Shown one piece after another: positions 1-10,290 of a stretch of DNA of 64,000 nt (its first letter is position 1; each line of letters starts with the position of its first letter). The stretch comes from Desulfobulbus propionicus. Lineage in GTDB: Bacteria; Desulfobacterota; Desulfobulbia; Desulfobulbales; Desulfobulbaceae. The notes below the pieces were generated by a model. It worked only from the letters and a program-made list of their open reading frames with translations. It did no database searches and was not told where the DNA came from. Made by a program: the position numbers and the translations under genes. The stretch spans positions 30,476 through 94,475 of the forward strand of contig PDTC01000022.1 of the NCBI GenBank assembly GCA_002748735.1, written 5' to 3'.

Positions 1-61
1 AACCAGAGACGGCAGTTGCTTACCGGTGCTTTTGCACCATAATGCCTCAGGAATAACGGAT

Positions 62-2930: not shown

Positions 2931-4880
2931 TGGATGCCGGCCTTCGCCGGAATGACAGAGAGGGGTGGCGCAATGTCGGGTGTAGTGAACGAGGCCACAG
3001 TGCCGTCATCCCGGGCCTGGATCCAGAAAAGGCGGCCAACCCTGCAAGTATTTGCAACCCCCTATCCACGATTGTCAAAATGAAGCAGCCCGCCGTGTAT
3101 ATCCTGGCCAGCAAGAAAAATGGGACACTCTATGTTGGTGTGACATCGAATCTTGCCAAACGGGTCTGGGAGCACAAAAACGATGTTGGTAAAGGGTTTA
3201 CCCGTCGATACCAGGTACACCGCCTGGTCTGGTACGAAGTACACGAAGGTATGGAAGCGGCCATTACCAGGGAAAAACGGATAAAAGGCTGGCAACGGAA
3301 GTGGAAAATTGCATTGATAGAACAACAGAATCCGGACTGGGTTGACCTGTATGACACACTGGTTTGATGGAGGGAAAAAGTACTGCCAGCGTGTTAAAGG
3401 GATTTCCTGGATGCCGGCTTTCGCCGGAATGACAAATTGCTGTCATCCCGGGCTTGACCCGGGATCCATAAAGGTTGGGGCTTACCGGAAAGTTTCGCTT
3501 CCCTGGATGCCGGCTTTCGCCGGAATGACAAGAGAAGTGCCACAATGACGCAGCATCGTCATCCCGGGCTTGACCCGGGATCCATAAAGGTCGGGGCTTT
3601 GCCGGGAACTTCCGTTTCCTGGATGCCGGCCTTCGCCGGAATGACAAGAGAGGTGGCGGAATGTCGAGTGTAGTGAACGAGGGCACAGTGCTGTCATCCC
3701 GGGCTTGACCCGGGATCCATAAAGGTTGGGGCCTTACCGGGAAGTTCGGTTTCCCTGGATTCCGGCTTTCGCCGGAATGACAGAGGGGTGCCACAATGAC
3801 GCAGTGCCGTCATCCCGGGCTTGACCCGGGATCCATAACGGTTGGGCCTTACCGGGAACTTCCGCTTCCCTGGATGCCGGCTTTCGCCGGAATGACGAAT
3901 TGCTGTCATCCCGGGCTTGCCCCGGGATCCAGAAAAGGTTGGGGCTTTGCCGGGAACTTCCGCTTCCTGGATGCCGGCTTTCGCCGGAATGACAGAGAAG
4001 TGTGGCGAGGGCAGCATCGTCATCCCGGGCTTGACCCGGGATCCATAAAGGTTGGGGCGTTACCGGGAAGTTCGGCTTCCCTGGATTCCGGCTTTCGCCG
4101 GAATGACGCAGTGCTGTCATCCCGGGCCTGACCCGGGATCCAGAAAGGTTGGGCCTTACCGGGAAGTTCCGTTTTCTGGATTCCGGCCTTCGCCGGAATG
4201 ACAAGAGAAGTGCCACAATGACGCAGTGTCGTCATCCCGGGCTTGCCCCGGGATCCATAAAGGTTGGGGCGTTACCGGAAAGTTCCGCTTCCCTGGATTC
4301 CGGCTTTCGCCGGAATGACGAATTGCTGTCATCCCGGGCCTGACCCGGGATCCATAAAGGTTGGGGCTTACCGGGAAGTTCGGCTTCCCTGGATTCCGGC
4401 TTTCGCCGGAATGACAGAGAGAGGTGCCACAATGACGAATTGTCGTCATCCCGGGCTTGCCCCGGGATCCATAAAAGGTCGGGCGGGGCCTTACCGGGAA
4501 GTTCGGCTTCCTGGATTCCGGCCTTCGCCGGAATGACAAATTGCTGTCATCCCGGGCTTGCCCCGGGATCCATAGAGGTTGGGGCCTTACCGGGAAGTTC
4601 AGCTTCCTGGATTCCGGCTTTCGCCGGAATGACGAATTGTCGTCATCCCGGGCTTGACCCGGGATCCATAGAGGTCGGGACGTTATCGGAAAGTTCGGCT
4701 TCTCTGGATGCCGGCTTTCGCCGGAATGACAGAGAGGGGTAGCGGAATGTCGGGTGTGGTGAACGAGGCCACAGCATCGTCATCCCGGGCTTGCCCCGGG
4801 ATCCATAGAGATTGGGCCTTACCGGAAAGTTCCGCTTCCTGGATGCCGGCTTGCCCCGGAATGACAGAGAGCTGTCGGAA
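2931..4880. repeat. Array I of alternating palindromic dyads (REP/BIME-like)
   Basis: Two short dyads alternate. Type A has the core ATTCCGGCTTTCGCCGGAAT and is followed by GAC; type B is GTCATCCCGGG-cttga-CCCGGGATCCA. I count about 15 A and 14 B copies here. Read on the opposite strand, A also begins GTCAT and ends ATCCAGG, so A and B look like inverted relatives of one element, facing each other as in bacterial interspersed mosaic elements. B start points (3442, 3558, 3693, 3809, 3905, 4019, 4116, 4231, 4328, 4445, 4546, 4642, 4779) fall at about 97, 116 or 136 base intervals. A longer spacer occurs three times (near 2971, 3661 and 4747). All long ORFs across the array are translation artefacts of the repeat. 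A GIY-YIG gene interrupts the array near its left end. Confidence 0.9.
3080..3367 (+). CDS. GIY-YIG endonuclease-domain protein
   Basis: A 95-residue protein consisting of a single GIY-YIG domain: VYILASKKNGTLYVGVTSN gives the two-part signature (VYI...YVG), and the catalytic Arg lies in LAKRVWEHK with Glu in YEVHEGMEAAITREKRIKGW. This is the small UPF0213/YhbQ-like class of GIY-YIG proteins, not a full homing enzyme. Exact substrate is unknown. It lies between the first dyad pair (2931-3030) and the main array (from 3400), so it is surrounded by repeats on both sides. I infer, but cannot show, that single-domain GIY-YIG genes of this sort are linked to the spread or upkeep of such repeats, in the way RAYT transposases are for REPs. 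Confidence 0.88.
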   Translation: MKQPAVYILASKKNGTLYVGVTSNLAKRVWEHKNDVGKGFTRRYQVHRLVWYEVHEGMEAAITREKRIKGWQRKWKIALIEQQNPDWVDLYDTLV

Positions 4881-5031: not shown

Positions 5032-5736
5032 ATGCAACACAGGCTACTCATCCTTTTAACAATTTTCTGGGCGTCAGGTGCCTGGGCCGGCAACAACGCT
5101 GGCGGTGCCTTTACTACCTGGCCGGATACCGGGCAGAGCACATGCTACGATAACAGTGGTGAAATTCCCTGTCCGCAGGAAGGTGAGGCATTTTACGGCC
5201 AGGACGCCCAGTACCAGGGGCCGGTTCGTTCCTATACCAAACTGGATAGCAGTGGCAATCCATTGCCGGAAGATGCTACGAGCTGGGTTATGGTGCGCGA
5301 CAATGTGACCGGTCTGATCTGGGAGGTAAAGGAGAACGGCGATGGAACTGCAGAGTACAGTAACCCCCATGACGCCGACAACACCTATACCTGGTGTGAT
5401 ACCAATCCTGATACCAACGGCGGTGACCAGGGCACCTGCGGCGATCATGACACCGAGGAGTTTATCAATGCCTTGAACAGCGCTAACTTTGGCGGCTACA
5501 ATGACTGGCGGCTGCCCACCATCAAAGAGCTGGCAACCCTTGTTGACTACGCCAAATACAATCCGGCCATTGATACGGCCTTTTTCCCTGATACACACTC
5601 GGCCACTTACTGGTCGGCTACTACTCTCGCGCTCGATACCAGCTTCGCATGGAACGTGCATTTCGACTACGGCTACGACGGCAGCCTCAATAAGTCGTAC
5701 AGCAACCATGTGCGCGCTGTTCGCGCCGGACAGTAG
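5032..5736 (+). CDS. Secreted DUF1566 protein, candidate DGR variable protein
   Basis: A 234-residue exported protein: signal peptide MQHRLLILLTIFWASGAWAG, then a DUF1566 (Lcl C-terminal) domain with DNVTGLIWEVKENGDGT, NDWRLPTIKELATLVDY, NPAIDTAFFPDT, YWSATT and the end block VRAVRAGQ. DUF1566 has a C-type-lectin-like fold and is a known class of target domain for diversity-generating retroelements (established knowledge). The last 42 codons (5608-5733) correspond to the usual variable region. They differ from the second DUF1566 copy at 6214-6342 nearly only at first and second codon positions. A strong AAGGAGG precedes the ATG. Directly downstream is an avd stump, the usual DGR order. Ligand unknown. 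Confidence 0.85.
   Translation: MQHRLLILLTIFWASGAWAGNNAGGAFTTWPDTGQSTCYDNSGEIPCPQEGEAFYGQDAQYQGPVRSYTKLDSSGNPLPEDATSWVMVRDNVTGLIWEVKENGDGTAEYSNPHDADNTYTWCDTNPDTNGGDQGTCGDHDTEEFINALNSANFGGYNDWRLPTIKELATLVDYAKYNPAIDTAFFPDTHSATYWSATTLALDTSFAWNVHFDYGYDGSLNKSYSNHVRAVRAGQ
5608..5733 (+). repeat. Putative DGR variable region 1
   Basis: Codons 193-234 of the DUF1566 gene. Paired with 6214-6342, the differing codons include CTC/CGC, CTC/GGC, GAT/TAT, ACC/GCC, TTC/AGC, AAC/TAC, GAC/GGC, TAC/AGC, TAC/GCC, AGC/TAC and CAT/CGT. All of these could be explained by substitution at template adenines. The 3' flank (GTGCGCGCTGTTCGCGCC) is identical in both copies and GC-rich, like an IMH. The two regions differ by one codon in length, which a single template would not explain. 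Confidence 0.6.
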
Positions 5737-5778
5737 GTTGATACTTGGAACCTTTGGCTCTTTTGCGGGGTGCTGCTT

Positions 5779-5883
5779 ATGGCGCGTTATGAGCATTTAC
5801 CAATCTATAAAAAGGGAATGGAACTGGCTGGTTATCGTGAGCATTGCGTCCGCGGTTTCAGCCGGTATCATTACATACAGTGA
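5779..5883 (+). pseudogene. avd: Truncated avd (DGR accessory variability determinant)
   Basis: A 34-codon reading frame beginning MARYEHLPIYKKGMELA and ending VRGFSRYHYIQ before TGA. This matches, from memory of the family, the conserved N-terminus of Avd four-helix-bundle proteins (YEHLPIYK..MDLA...VR.FSRYHKYTLG). Avd is normally about 110-125 residues, binds the DGR reverse transcriptase as a pentameric barrel and is needed for mutagenic retrohoming. Here everything after the first helix is gone and the next DUF1566 gene starts nine bases after the stop. It sits 42 bases after the first DUF1566 gene, which is the usual position of avd. Too short to function; I regard it as the scar of a deleted avd-TR-RT segment. 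Confidence 0.8.
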
Positions 5884-5891
5884 GGAAACAT

Positions 5892-5997
5892 ATGAAACAG
5901 AATAGACATGTACTGCTGTCCCTGCTGACATACCGTTCCTGCATATGCGGCATGTATTGATAATGGTGACGGCACGGTCACGGATACGGCAACCGGG
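5892..5997 (+). pseudogene. Frameshifted signal-peptide segment of the large DUF1566 protein
   Basis: ATG 5892 begins MKQNRHVLLSLLT, a typical signal peptide, but that frame stops after 22 codons. The frame that encodes the mature protein runs from about 5931 (VPAYAACIDNGDGTVTDTAT) directly into the next entry. The two halves are offset by one base near 5928-5930, so a single indel has cut the export signal from the protein, or the sequence has an error there. Confidence 0.7.
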
Positions 5998-8900
5998 TTG
6001 ATGTGGGCACAGGCCAGTGCTGATACTGACAACGATGGAACCCCTAATAAGATGAGCTGGCAAGAGGCCCTGGCCTGGTGTGAAAACCTTGAACTGGCAG
6101 GGTATACCGACTGGCGGCTCCCCAATATCAATGAGCTGCGCTCCCTTGTCGATGACTCCAGATATAATCCGGCCATCGATACCACCTTTTTCCCTGATAC
6201 ACGCTCGGCCTATTACTGGTCGGCGACTACTCGCGCGGGCTATGCCAGCAGCGCATGGTACGTGCATTTCGGCAGCGGCTACGGCGGCCTCAGCTACCAT
6301 AAGTCGGCCTACTACCGTGTGCGCGCTGTTCGCGCCGGACAGTCTTCGGTAATTGGGCCATTGGATCCTTTGAGTATTTCCCTTTCCGCGACGACGGTGG
6401 CGCCAGGCAATACGCTTACCCTGCAGGGAGAAGGGTTTACTGCCAATGGAAGTATCGAGTTAACCTTTATACATCCTGATACAAGTGCCTCAACAACCAC
6501 AGTACAGGCTGATTCCTACGGATATCTGGAGTATCAGTGGCAGGTACTGCCGCAAAGCGAGGAAGGGCAATATACAGTTACGGCAAGAGATGTTACTACT
6601 GATCGTTATACCTCACCATTATCCTACACTGTAGACCAGGGTGTCACCATTGTAACCGGAGTGTACAGGGCTGCCAATGTGGGGGTGATTGGCAATGAAT
6701 TTTCCCTTTGGATGGATATCTCTGTTGATGGTCAGGCAACTGCTGATTTTTGCAATCAGTACAGCACTGAAATAACCGGTACCGACGGTATGCCGGTGAC
6801 AACCCTGGGCTGTGAGCATCAGGGTGCAGGAACCTATGTACCAAACTCCTCTCGTTATAAATTCACTTTTCGTATAGTGCCAACAGGACATGCTGCCTGG
6901 TTTGAAGGTGGCAAGATGACCTTTATTGATAAGAGTAACCCTGCGATAAGGCATGAAGTTAGGGGCCTTGGACAGCTGGATATTTATGGCACCACCTTTG
7001 ATATGCGCTACCATGCCTGGAAGTTTGAAAATGCACACTGGACTGTGCCTCAAAATTTGATAGTTGGTTTTAGTGATTTTCCCCAAAATGAATATGCCTG
7101 GTTGATTGATAGTCTTAAAAAATTCCTGCCTAAGGAAAAAATCGGTGCACTGATTACAGATTTTGGTGAATTTAATATTTATCATTTGGGTTTTGTTCCT
7201 GTTTTACCTTATTATGATTCTGCTAATGGGGGCTGTTTTGGCATGGCAACGGTTGCCATTGCCAACTTTATCCATGATGGTGCGACCTGGGGCATGGGAG
7301 GTTTGGAAGATTTTGATGATGAGATTAATGCCTTCTGGCCCACAGGAGCAACCCAGGCAGCCGGACCATTCAAGCCCCTTGATGATCAAGTAGGAAAGTA
7401 CAACTGGAATGTACAGTCAGCCAAAAAAATTATGTACTATCATGCCGCTCAGGAGTACTTCAAAGGAGGTTCTCATGGCGTAGGTTCTATGGAGAACAAA
7501 GATTTTTTCCCAGATTCTCGATTAGAAACACTAAAAAAAGGAAGACCTATTTCTTTTGGATTTCGTTTGGCTGAGGGGAGTCATCGAGTAGCAATTGTAC
7601 AGGCAATTACCTTAAATGGGTGCGATTTTTATACTGTCTGGGACAACAATCAACCTCTAAATCCAGAAAGAGAGTACAGTCCATACCAGCAGTGGGTCGT
7701 AACTAATCCAGGAGGAATGTATAAAAAATTAGGTAATGGTACGTCGATTTATCGGGTCAACAAAACAGATGGGTCTTTGAGCAAGAGAATGTACGATATT
7801 AAAAAGGCCTTTATTATTTCTCCAGACCAAGAATCAGATACCTTCAATATTTATAACCTGCGAAACGATAAACTGGCCAGCCAGCAAAAGAAAGAATCTG
7901 GTGACGGGAAAAGGGACTCGGAAAACCAGGTACGAAACGACCATCCTGACCATATTGTTATTCAGACGCTGGGTATAAATGTTGACAGTGTACAAACCAC
8001 CGGCGGCCAGCCTGTTCCTTTGATTCCCAACGGGTCACTTGAGACCGACGACAGTGCTGTTATTGTAACAACTACTGGTGGTATGTACAATGCCATCTAT
8101 CTGCCGGTTACCAATGATTACCGCATGGACATAACCAAGCAGGAAGATATTGACAATCCAAAGATCTATATAAAATTTGGCCAGACCAACGGCCAGGTCA
8201 AACAACGTCACCATGATGATCTTGGCCTGCCTGTTGGTGCTGCAACACAGATGTATTTTCAGGTTGGACGCACCAACAGCGATATGCAGGTGCATGTGAT
8301 TGGCGGTGCGGCACAGGATCCGGTTTTTGAAGGTCTTGCTACGCCGCCGTTGTTGCCGCCGGTTAACTTTCGCGGCCTGTATCAGGCAGACGGTGTGCGG
8401 CTGAACTGGAGCACTCCGGAAGATCCTGCCTTTGATCATGTGGTGGTGGTACGTAAAGAAGGCGGATATCCTGCCTCACCTGCAGATGGAGAGGTGCTCT
8501 ATTCAGGGACTGGTGAAGAAATACTGGATACAAATGCTCAGCAAAATCATCTCCATTTTTACAGTGCGTTCAGTGTAGATGGCAGCGGAGATCCATCAGA
8601 AGCGGTCAATCTGTGGATTGATACCCGTAAATACAGCATTGAAGGAACTGTAAGCAAGACCGACGGCACTCCGCTGTCTGGTGTGTTGCTCGAACTGCAG
8701 GGACCGGATGTTGAAAGCCAGTATACGGCAGTTACCGGCCCGGATGGACGATACACCATTGCCAATATTCAAAATAATCCCTACACCTTGTCCGCGCATA
8801 AGTTTGGGTACGGTTTTGGCAGTAATCCACGTACGGTAGACATCAATGTTGCCAACCAGATAGAAAATTTTGCTGATGGAACCGGAGTGCCGGCAGCCCG

Positions 8901-9651
8901 AATACTGTTTTCGCGATCACAGGTGTATACGGGTAACACCTATACCCTTCGCTGGGGCTATGCCAACATGCCCGATAACGAACGTGTGAACATCCTGGTC
9001 AATCCGGGGAATCAGGAGTATCTTGTGGGCACGGATATTCCCCTCAAAGCCGGGGAATGCCCGTGGCAGGTTAACCAGGTACAACCGGCAAATTCAGATG
9101 AGGTGACCGTTCTTATCAAGAGAACCAGTGATAATGTCGTACTTCACGCTGAAACGCTGTCTCTGGAGATAGAACCGTATGACAGTGATGCAGACGGGTT
9201 GCCCAACGAACTTGAAGACGGGTCTTGTACCAACAAATTGGATGCTGATAGCGACGATGATGGCCTTGCCGACGGGGTGGAAGACGCCAACCATAATGGT
9301 CAAGTTGATACTGGCGAGACAAACCCCTGCAGCGCTGACAGTGACAATGACGGGATTCAGGACGGTACAGAGCTTGGCATAACTGCACCTGTACCTGATC
9401 CTGATGGCAGCGGGCCGCTTCTGGGCACTGATACTTCAATCTTCCAGCCAGACCTTGATCCGGCAACCACAACTGATCCCTTGAACGCGGATACCGATGA
9501 TGACGGCGTTGAGGATGGCACAGAAGATGGTAACCTGAATGGGCGGTTGGATGAAGGGGAGACAGATCCCCTGGATGCGAGTTCATACCCGGGAGGTACT
9601 GATTTTTACTGGCCGTTGTTTCTGCCTGCCATAACAACCGACCAGCAGTAG
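5998..9651 (+). CDS. Large multidomain surface protein: DUF1566, Ig-like, Cys-protease-like, Ca-binding repeats
   Basis: 1217 residues from ATG 5998, the first usable ATG in frame; the true start was probably 5892 before a frameshift. Order: DUF1566 with variable region (1-115), Ig/IPT-like segment (about 118-215), and a papain/C39-like region with Cys413 in NGGCFGMA, His529 in EGSHRVAIVQA and Asp549 in VWDNN. Then come a fibronectin-like stretch, a carboxypeptidase-regulatory-like beta sandwich (about 878-955, YSIEGTVSKTDGTPLSGV) and thrombospondin-type-3 Asp-rich repeats (about 1062-1195: DSDADGLPN, DADSDDDGLADG, DSDNDGIQDG). It ends with TDFYWPLFLPAI. The triad assignment is inference from spacing and motif shape. 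The codon composition of the middle part is AT-richer than the ends, suggesting a mosaic origin. Followed by a terminator and array II. Confidence 0.75.
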   Translation: MMWAQASADTDNDGTPNKMSWQEALAWCENLELAGYTDWRLPNINELRSLVDDSRYNPAIDTTFFPDTRSAYYWSATTRAGYASSAWYVHFGSGYGGLSYHKSAYYRVRAVRAGQSSVIGPLDPLSISLSATTVAPGNTLTLQGEGFTANGSIELTFIHPDTSASTTTVQADSYGYLEYQWQVLPQSEEGQYTVTARDVTTDRYTSPLSYTVDQGVTIVTGVYRAANVGVIGNEFSLWMDISVDGQATADFCNQYSTEITGTDGMPVTTLGCEHQGAGTYVPNSSRYKFTFRIVPTGHAAWFEGGKMTFIDKSNPAIRHEVRGLGQLDIYGTTFDMRYHAWKFENAHWTVPQNLIVGFSDFPQNEYAWLIDSLKKFLPKEKIGALITDFGEFNIYHLGFVPVLPYYDSANGGCFGMATVAIANFIHDGATWGMGGLEDFDDEINAFWPTGATQAAGPFKPLDDQVGKYNWNVQSAKKIMYYHAAQEYFKGGSHGVGSMENKDFFPDSRLETLKKGRPISFGFRLAEGSHRVAIVQAITLNGCDFYTVWDNNQPLNPEREYSPYQQWVVTNPGGMYKKLGNGTSIYRVNKTDGSLSKRMYDIKKAFIISPDQESDTFNIYNLRNDKLASQQKKESGDGKRDSENQVRNDHPDHIVIQTLGINVDSVQTTGGQPVPLIPNGSLETDDSAVIVTTTGGMYNAIYLPVTNDYRMDITKQEDIDNPKIYIKFGQTNGQVKQRHHDDLGLPVGAATQMYFQVGRTNSDMQVHVIGGAAQDPVFEGLATPPLLPPVNFRGLYQADGVRLNWSTPEDPAFDHVVVVRKEGGYPASPADGEVLYSGTGEEILDTNAQQNHLHFYSAFSVDGSGDPSEAVNLWIDTRKYSIEGTVSKTDGTPLSGVLLELQGPDVESQYTAVTGPDGRYTIANIQNNPYTLSAHKFGYGFGSNPRTVDINVANQIENFADGTGVPAARILFSRSQVYTGNTYTLRWGYANMPDNERVNILVNPGNQEYLVGTDIPLKAGECPWQVNQVQPANSDEVTVLIKRTSDNVVLHAETLSLEIEPYDSDADGLPNELEDGSCTNKLDADSDDDGLADGVEDANHNGQVDTGETNPCSADSDNDGIQDGTELGITAPVPDPDGSGPLLGTDTSIFQPDLDPATTTDPLNADTDDDGVEDGTEDGNLNGRLDEGETDPLDASSYPGGTDFYWPLFLPAITTDQQ
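6214..6342 (+). repeat. Putative DGR variable region 2
   Basis: Codons 73-115 of the large protein, aligned with 5608-5733. Upstream flanks of the two copies show ordinary third-position differences (CTGCCC/CTCCCC, ATTGAT/ATCGAT), but inside the region I find only one clear third-position change (GCT/GCG) against many first/second-position ones. Unusually for a DGR target, it is internal rather than at the C-terminus. Confidence 0.55.
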
Positions 9652-9743: not shown

Positions 9744-10290
9744 AATCCCTGGATTCCGGCTTTCGCCGGAATGACAGAGAGAGGTGCCACAATGACGAAT
9801 TGTCGTCATCCCGGGCTTGCCCCGGGATCCATAAAAGGTCGGGCCTTACCAGGAAGTTCCGCTTCCCTGGATTCCGGCTTTCGCCGGAATGACGAATTGC
9901 CGTCATCCCGGGCTTGACCAGGGATCCATAAAAGTCGGGGGCTTACCGGAAAGTTCGGTTTCCCTGGATTCCGGCTTTCGCCGGAATGACGAATTGTTGT
10001 CATCCCGGGCTTGCCCCGGGATCCAGAAAAGGTTGGGGCCTTACCGGAAAGTTCCGCTTCCCTGGATGCCGGCTTTCGCCGGAATGACGAATTGCCGTCA
10101 TCCCGGGCTTGACCCGGGATCCATAGAGGTTGGGGCCTTACCGGGAAGTTCGGCTTCCCTGGATTCCGGCTTTCGCCGGAATGACGAATTGTTGTCATCC
10201 CGGGCTTGCCCCGGGATCCAGAAAAGGTTGGGGCCTTACCGGGAAGTTCCGCTTCCTGGATTCCGGCCTTCGCCGGAATGACAGAGAGGT
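9744..10290. repeat. Array II of the same palindromic dyads
   Basis: Six type A and five type B dyads identical in design to array I. The B copies start at 9805, 9902, 9999, 10097 and 10194, an almost constant 97-base period without the longer spacer variants of array I. The intervening TTACCGG(G/A)AAGTTCSGSTTCC block is also conserved, so the real unit is a ~97-base composite. It lies between the surface-protein terminator and the 3' end of the ParB-like gene. Confidence 0.9.

What the first reader, a model, noticed from the sequence alone, without database searches (positions are those of the whole stretch)
5032..6342. Remnant of a diversity-generating retroelement: two DUF1566 variable-region genes around an avd stump
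Seen directly: two DUF1566 domains whose last ~42 codons (5608-5733 and 6214-6342) keep identical framework codons and an identical 3' end (GTGCGCGCTGTTCGCGCC). They differ almost only at first/second positions of NNC/NNT codons (CTC/GGC, TTC/AGC, AAC/TAC, GAC/GGC, TAC/AGC, CAT/CGT), while flanks show ordinary third-position changes. Between them a 34-codon frame begins MARYEHLPIYKKGMELA and ends FSRYHYIQ, matching the Avd N-terminus. Known: DGRs are ordered variable protein-avd-TR-RT, and DUF1566/C-type-lectin domains are DGR targets. Inference: the avd 3' part, TR and RT were deleted, leaving frozen variants. Caveat: the two regions differ by one codon in length.
Basis: partly seen in the sequence, partly recalled or inferred. 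Interest (0 to 1): 0.9.

Follow-up and report, generated by a model that had tools for sequence, protein, structure and literature searches.

The report
Fossil of a gene-hypermutation cassette
Two neighbouring bacterial surface-type protein genes carry the fingerprints of a natural hypermutation machine whose enzyme and template appear to have been deleted, leaving a stump of its helper gene; such leftovers are already known, but here related genomes show several stages of the same decay.

Summary
Window 5032-5736 and 5998-9651 encode two Lcl_C (DUF1566) proteins. Their variable regions differ at 22 of 117 aligned bases, 21 at codon positions 1-2 and one at position 3; the flank has ordinary third-position changes (9 of 35 codons). 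The 34-codon frame between them matches residues 1-31 of the Avds of related cassettes (E 4e-12). No RT, full Avd or third repeat copy was found in the window's genome (85.6% complete). Three order-level relatives and a Desulfobacteraceae MAG carry the intact element, gene1(VR1)-avd-TR-RT-gene2(VR2). In these four, each VR differs from its TR at 11-23 of 37-42 adenines and 0-1 of 80-86 other bases. In the window 17-21 of 22-24 VR1/VR2 differences lie on relatives' template adenines. A deletion of about 2.0-2.7 kb (inferred) removed most of avd, TR and RT. Other loci show partial deletions with other break points. Core-less target genes are already published for Treponema denticola, so this is a new member of a known kind; the decay series and a possible codon-position clock are the added value.

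The parts
5032..5736 (+). gene1: Lcl_C (DUF1566) protein, 234 aa, signal-peptide-like start (by eye), first target gene
   Evidence: Pfam PF07603 E 8.2e-36; homologues beside avd in related cassettes
5599..5733 (+). VR1: former variable region, ending in GGACAG
   Evidence: codon-position pattern and alignment to relatives' TRs; 5' limit inferred by eye from where relatives' TRs begin
5779..5883 (+). avd stump: residues 1-31 of Avd, then 3 more residues and a stop
   Evidence: profile from seven related Avds, E 4.1e-12, residues 1-31; 20 shuffled windows plus the reversed one gave one hit, E 6.5
5872..5891 (+). inferred deletion scar: avd runs straight into the start of gene2; rest of avd, TR and RT absent
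   Evidence: same interval is 2236, 2702, 2194 and 1973 bases in L078, L079, L150 and L210
5892..5960 (+). original start and signal-peptide-like stretch of gene2, out of frame with the rest (22 codons, then stop)
5998..9651 (+). gene2: large surface-type protein with Lcl_C at its N terminus, second target gene
   Evidence: ORF of 1217 aa; Pfam Lcl_C and CarboxypepD_reg; CglD-like match far below its cut-off
6205..6342 (+). VR2: former variable region, one codon longer than VR1
   Evidence: 5' limit inferred as for VR1
5710..5734 (+). shared 3' block of VR1
   Evidence: exact match to 6319-6343
6319..6343 (+). shared 3' block of VR2
   Evidence: exact match to 5710-5734

Best explanation
This is the fossil of a two-target diversity-generating retroelement. 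In its working form, as still seen in relatives, the order is gene1(VR1)-avd-TR-RT-gene2(VR2). By the established DGR mechanism the RT with Avd copies the template RNA with errors at adenines, and the mutated cDNA overwrites the end of the Lcl_C domain of either target, so two surface-type proteins are diversified from one template. In the window's lineage a deletion, from about Avd codon 31 to just before the start of gene2, removed most of avd, the template and the RT. Both variable regions are then frozen variants that change only by ordinary mutation. The single third-position difference suggests that the freeze is recent compared with pairs that have lost every trace of the core. A frameshift in the start of gene2 suggests that the second target is decaying too, if it is not an assembly error. 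Shown here: the domains, the adenine pattern, the avd stump, the absence of the core from the assembly, and the homologous intact order elsewhere. Inferred: that it was one deletion, that the core is absent from the organism and not only from the assembly, that the proteins bind ligands at the surface, and that the freeze is recent.
For: VR pair 11/10/1 vs flank 6/5/9. 17-21 of 22-24 VR1/VR2 differences lie on adenines of each of six relatives' templates, Fisher p 8.8e-11 to 5.6e-6 over the four gap placements printed; 19 of 22 on the L079 template against at most 14 in 116 slid placements. Avd stump E 4.1e-12. Intact order with TR in L078, L079, L125, L150; RVT_1 in the three RTs tested, L078, L079, L150; Avds of L078 and L079 reach the Pfam bAvd cut-off. 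Own VR-TR comparison in these four: 11-23 of 37-42 adenines changed, 0-1 of 80-86 other bases (the TR was taken as the most adenine-rich of the three copies). No RT, bAvd or third repeat copy in the own assembly. Partial deletions with other break points: L080, L088, L151, L205.
Against: Curated Avd profiles and the PDB do not match the 34-aa stub. The genome is 85.6% complete, so an RT and TR in the missing part cannot be excluded. No second genome of the genus is held, so the templates are proxies from other families. 3 to 5 of the differences do not lie on proxy adenines. The deletion and the frameshift rest on one MAG. In the gene1 tree the nearest rows are labelled as without avd and RT, though one of them, L071, is cut at its contig end.
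Confidence: 0.9

Rival explanations
1. The two genes are still live targets, diversified in trans by an RT and TR elsewhere in the organism that the assembly lacks.
For: Genome 85.6% complete; remote targets are published for cyanobacteria and T. denticola (passages of PMC7517822 and PMC4891356); the VR framework is almost unchanged between the copies.
Against: No RVT_1, related RT, bAvd or TR found in 1.81 Mb; the local avd is cut to 31 residues and gene2's start is out of frame.
Confidence: 0.08
2. Two duplicated DUF1566 genes diverged by ordinary mutation plus diversifying selection on ligand-contacting residues; no retroelement was involved.
For: Such domains can be under positive selection (general knowledge, not tested).
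Against: Selection on amino acids does not stop third-position drift: 1/39 in the VR vs 9/35 next to it; differences lie mostly on template adenines of six relatives; an avd stump sits between the genes.
Confidence: 0.01
3. The gene pair had no core of its own at this place; a stretch with gene1, a piece of avd and the VRs came in by recombination with a DGR-bearing relative.
For: Pairs in the same family that were inspected lack avd between the genes; arrays with the same two repeat motifs lie on both sides of the locus and could aid exchange.
Against: VR1 and VR2 share one template history including the 3' block, so gene2 too was rewritten from that template; window gene1 falls with mostly same-family rows, on a weakly supported fork.
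Confidence: 0.06

Closest known systems
Intact two-target DGRs in L078, L079, L125 (same order as the window) and L150 (Desulfobacteraceae MAG)
   Same: gene1 and gene2 homologues on either side, related Avd N terminus, VR ending GGACAG, template adenines under the variable codons
   Different: they keep full avd, TR and RT; the window keeps 31 residues of Avd only
Leftover target genes in Treponema denticola isolates without core DGR (PMC4891356, passages read)
   Same: target genes with adenine-pattern VRs, no RT or TR in the isolate
   Different: the passages I read mention no avd stump; here both former neighbours of the core sit side by side
Cyanobacterial paralogue all3226 (PMC7517822, passages read)
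   Same: remnant TR-VR homology without RT nearby; [quoted passage not shown]
   Different: described there as a dispersed paralogue, not as a cassette with an internal deletion
Bordetella phage BPP-1 DGR
   Same: order variable protein - Avd - TR - RT (bbp7 is Avd)
   Different: one target, phage-borne, intact

Membership tests
Diversity-generating retroelement (functional) | DGR-type reverse transcriptase | tested here: not met
   not found in the own assembly, which is 85.6% complete
Diversity-generating retroelement (functional) | adenine-rich template repeat sharing its 3' part with the VR | tested here: not met
   only the two VRs found; an adenine-rich pattern gave no TR
Diversity-generating retroelement (functional) | accessory Avd, full length | tested here: not met
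   31 matching residues remain, of 119-140 in the seven relatives
Remnant of a DGR | VR in a C-type-lectin-like/DUF1566 domain | tested here: met
   Pfam Lcl_C in both copies; C-type-lectin fold of DUF1566 is from a passage of PMC6642488, not tested here
Remnant of a DGR | substitutions concentrated on template adenines | tested here: met
   against six relatives' templates as proxies; slide control
Remnant of a DGR | homologous intact cassette with the same gene order in relatives | tested here: met
   L078, L079, L125, L150; L210 has the order but a frame-broken avd and an RT match of only about 280 residues
Remnant of a DGR | no further turnover of the VR between strains | not testable with these tools
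   no second genome of the genus held; no reads

The most novel reading that the evidence does not exclude
Cassettes built as target-avd-TR-RT-target repeatedly lose their central core and keep both targets, so that most paired DUF1566 surface-protein genes of Desulfobacterota are frozen DGR products. Third-position divergence inside the VR, relative to the flank, then tells how long ago each pair was locked. The window's locus would be one of the few still carrying the proof, an avd stump. Lock-in may even be a selected end point rather than mere decay.
Probability: 0.35. Interest if true: 0.65.

Novelty: new member of a known kind. Interest (0 to 1): 0.42.

Why it matters
It turns a guess from one sequence into a documented loss: a hypermutation machine gone while the diversified proteins stayed. 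With intact, part-deleted and core-less versions of homologous loci in related bacteria, one can ask whether losing the machine is decay or a way to keep a good variant. If core-less DUF1566 gene pairs prove to be DGR fossils in general, that would also explain many surface-type protein pairs in sulfate reducers.

Tried and rejected
Curated profiles for the stub: Pfam, NCBIfam and PDB gave nothing; a profile of seven related Avds did. The third Lcl_C gene of the genome (L003) was set aside: another architecture, and no third VR-like copy in the genome. An adenine-rich pattern hit on contig C2 was looked at and shows no VR homology. Phage origin: the IMG/VR scan with the gene1 alignment gave 7 loci at 26-45% identity, which I did not read further.

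Gene1 tree: 70 rows, labelled 65 without avd or RT, 3 core, 2 remnant. Avd-bearing rows are scattered, but starred branches force only 2 changes; with all three labels, 200 of 200 shuffles need as few changes, and for the avd-less label 37 of 500 do. So the tree does not prove repeated loss. Its pattern missed L079, L080, L088, L125, L140 and L150. A recheck: 55 of the 70 rows (window and L205 among them) have a second Lcl_C match within 700 bases, 3 farther (L078, L151, L210), and 12 have none in the sequence held, 6 of these with less than 2.7 kb left before the contig end. So 53 of the 65 avd-less rows are seen pairs.

Pair count: 38 pairs, 5 with avd whole or part (window, L079, L080, L151, L205), 33 without. 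The script dropped L078, L088, L125, L150 and L210, and some avd-less pairs counted (for example L155, L158, L165, L195, L204). Pairs from one genome or near-identical ones (L075, L127, L128; L074 and L137) are not independent. Against my bold reading: the 33 avd-less pairs as a group no longer show the adenine pattern (VR mean 0.33 at positions 1-2 and 0.41 at position 3; flank 0.35 and 0.55), so that they were ever DGR targets is not shown for most of them. RVT_1 is not specific to DGRs; I take the weak RT hits as other RT classes without testing.

Full report
What is in the window. Gene1 (5032-5736) is a 234-aa Lcl_C/DUF1566 protein; gene2 is a large protein (frame open to 9651) with Lcl_C at its N terminus. 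Between them lies a 34-codon frame, 5779-5883. The window is C27:30476-94475 of the assembly, so the locus is not at a contig end. Two contigs of same-family genomes (79,056 and 110,564 bases) have the lengths of named records (Candidatus Electronema sp. KV; Desulfobulbaceae UBA10518), from which I infer the family Desulfobulbaceae.

The variable regions. Codon by codon VR1 and VR2 differ at positions 1/2/3 in 11/10/1 cases over 39 codons, against 6/5/9 over the 35 aligned codons before them (listed). Third positions 1/39 vs 9/35, p 0.005; positions 1-2 vs 3 inside the VR, p 0.0009; the same contrast in the flank, p 0.29. The 3' block is identical in the two and its first 18 bases occur only there in the assembly with up to 2 mismatches.

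The avd stump. Curated profiles miss it. A profile from seven Avds of related cassettes, built without the stump, finds it at E 4.1e-12 over residues 1-31; the next window frame has E 0.36, and 20 shuffled windows plus the reversed one gave one hit, E 6.5.

The intact element. A DNA search with 5032-6360 matched 41 of 96 genomes, the own one included, many by short pieces. In L078 and L079, from two other families of the same order, the order is gene1-avd-TR-RT-gene2. Among 114 loci compared, some of them the same contig fetched twice, the order gene1-avd-RT-gene2 was seen in L078, L079, L125, L150, L151 and L210. A TR is visible in L078, L079, L125, L150 and L210; L151 shows none and lacks the start of its RT; L210 has a frame-broken avd and an RT match of about 280 residues. 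L140 has gene1, avd and a TR before its contig ends. Between each VR and its own TR in L078, L079, L125 and L150, 11-23 of 37-42 adenines and 0-1 of 80-86 other bases are changed; in L210 17-18 of 39 and 3-4 of 77. The VRs end GGACAG where the TR reads GGAAAG in L078, L079 and L150 and GGATAG in L125; the TR of L140 reads GGACAG.

Matching the window to templates. VR1 has the same 39 codons as the six templates used (L078, L079, L125, L140, L150, L210). Over four gap placements 17-21 of 22-24 VR1/VR2 differences fall on template adenines, Fisher p between 8.8e-11 and 5.6e-6; 3-5 do not. Sliding the L079 template over the pair gives at most 14 of 22 in 116 placements (mean 7.2), against 19 in register. 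These templates are proxies: the window's own template was not found.

What was lost. From Avd codon 31 to the start of gene2 the distance is 2236, 2702, 2194 and 1973 bases in L078, L079, L150 and L210; in the window it is 20. RT, full Avd and any third repeat copy were not found in the 1.81-Mb assembly, 85.6% complete. Gene2's signal-peptide-like start is out of frame.

Stages of decay. L080 keeps avd and only the tail of the RT; its genome also has the intact cassette L079, whose template has another framework, by eye. L205 keeps about 48 residues of avd and no RT. L088 has a truncated avd and no RT beside it, though its genome has an RT on another contig; its VR1 is 2 bases out of frame with VR2 and its VR2 carries a stop near the end. 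L151 lacks TR and RT start. The break points differ, so I read these as separate deletions. In the 38 gene1-gene2 pairs that one script could extract, the 5 with avd whole or part have VR third-position divergence 0.00-0.08, the 33 without avd 0.13-0.68. This fits a clock since core loss, but it is not calibrated, several cassettes were dropped by the script, and the avd-less group as a whole no longer shows the adenine pattern (means 0.33 at positions 1-2 and 0.41 at position 3). The gene1 tree scatters avd-bearing loci but does not prove repeated loss (details under Tried and rejected).

Known work, passages only in every case. PMC3521204 reports multi-VR DGRs and lists two-VR cases in Desulfobacter postgatei and an uncultured Desulfobacterium. 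PMC6642488 gives 28.6% of DGRs with multiple VRs and calls DUF1566 the most common Pfam domain of targets. Leftover targets after core loss are described for T. denticola in PMC4891356, and removal of the machinery is suggested for cyanobacteria in PMC7517822. PMC8144416, PMC8867640 and PMC10686091 were looked at too. A search for DGR with Desulfobulb- gave no paper; the listings showed me no title on such a decay series. That is a claim about these searches only.

Noticed in passing
window 2943-4795 and 9762-10282: Direct repeats about 100 bases apart (motifs CCCGGGATCCA and TTCGCCGGAATGAC) form arrays on both sides of the locus and, by exact match to these two motifs, occur nowhere else in the 64 kb. 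They might help exchange or deletion of the locus.
   Followed up: partly
L078:7709-9220, L079:572-2380, L150:1669-3189: The reverse transcriptases of these three intact cassettes carry a C-terminal MutS domain I.
   Followed up: partly
L140:2873-3060: A template repeat that ends in the VR-type GGACAG and is followed by a VR-type flank and what looks like the start of a second avd, as if TR and VR had recombined.
   Followed up: no
L075, L127, L128 (one genome, G073): Four gene1-gene2 pairs with partly kept VR pattern in a 98% complete genome in which no related RT was found.
   Followed up: partly
L078:6991-7428: VR2 of L078 is 72 bases longer than its template; VR lengths also differ in L210 and L151.
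   Followed up: no
L070, L075, L081, L091: In these relatives gene1 and gene2 run on in one frame, giving proteins with two Lcl_C domains.
   Followed up: no
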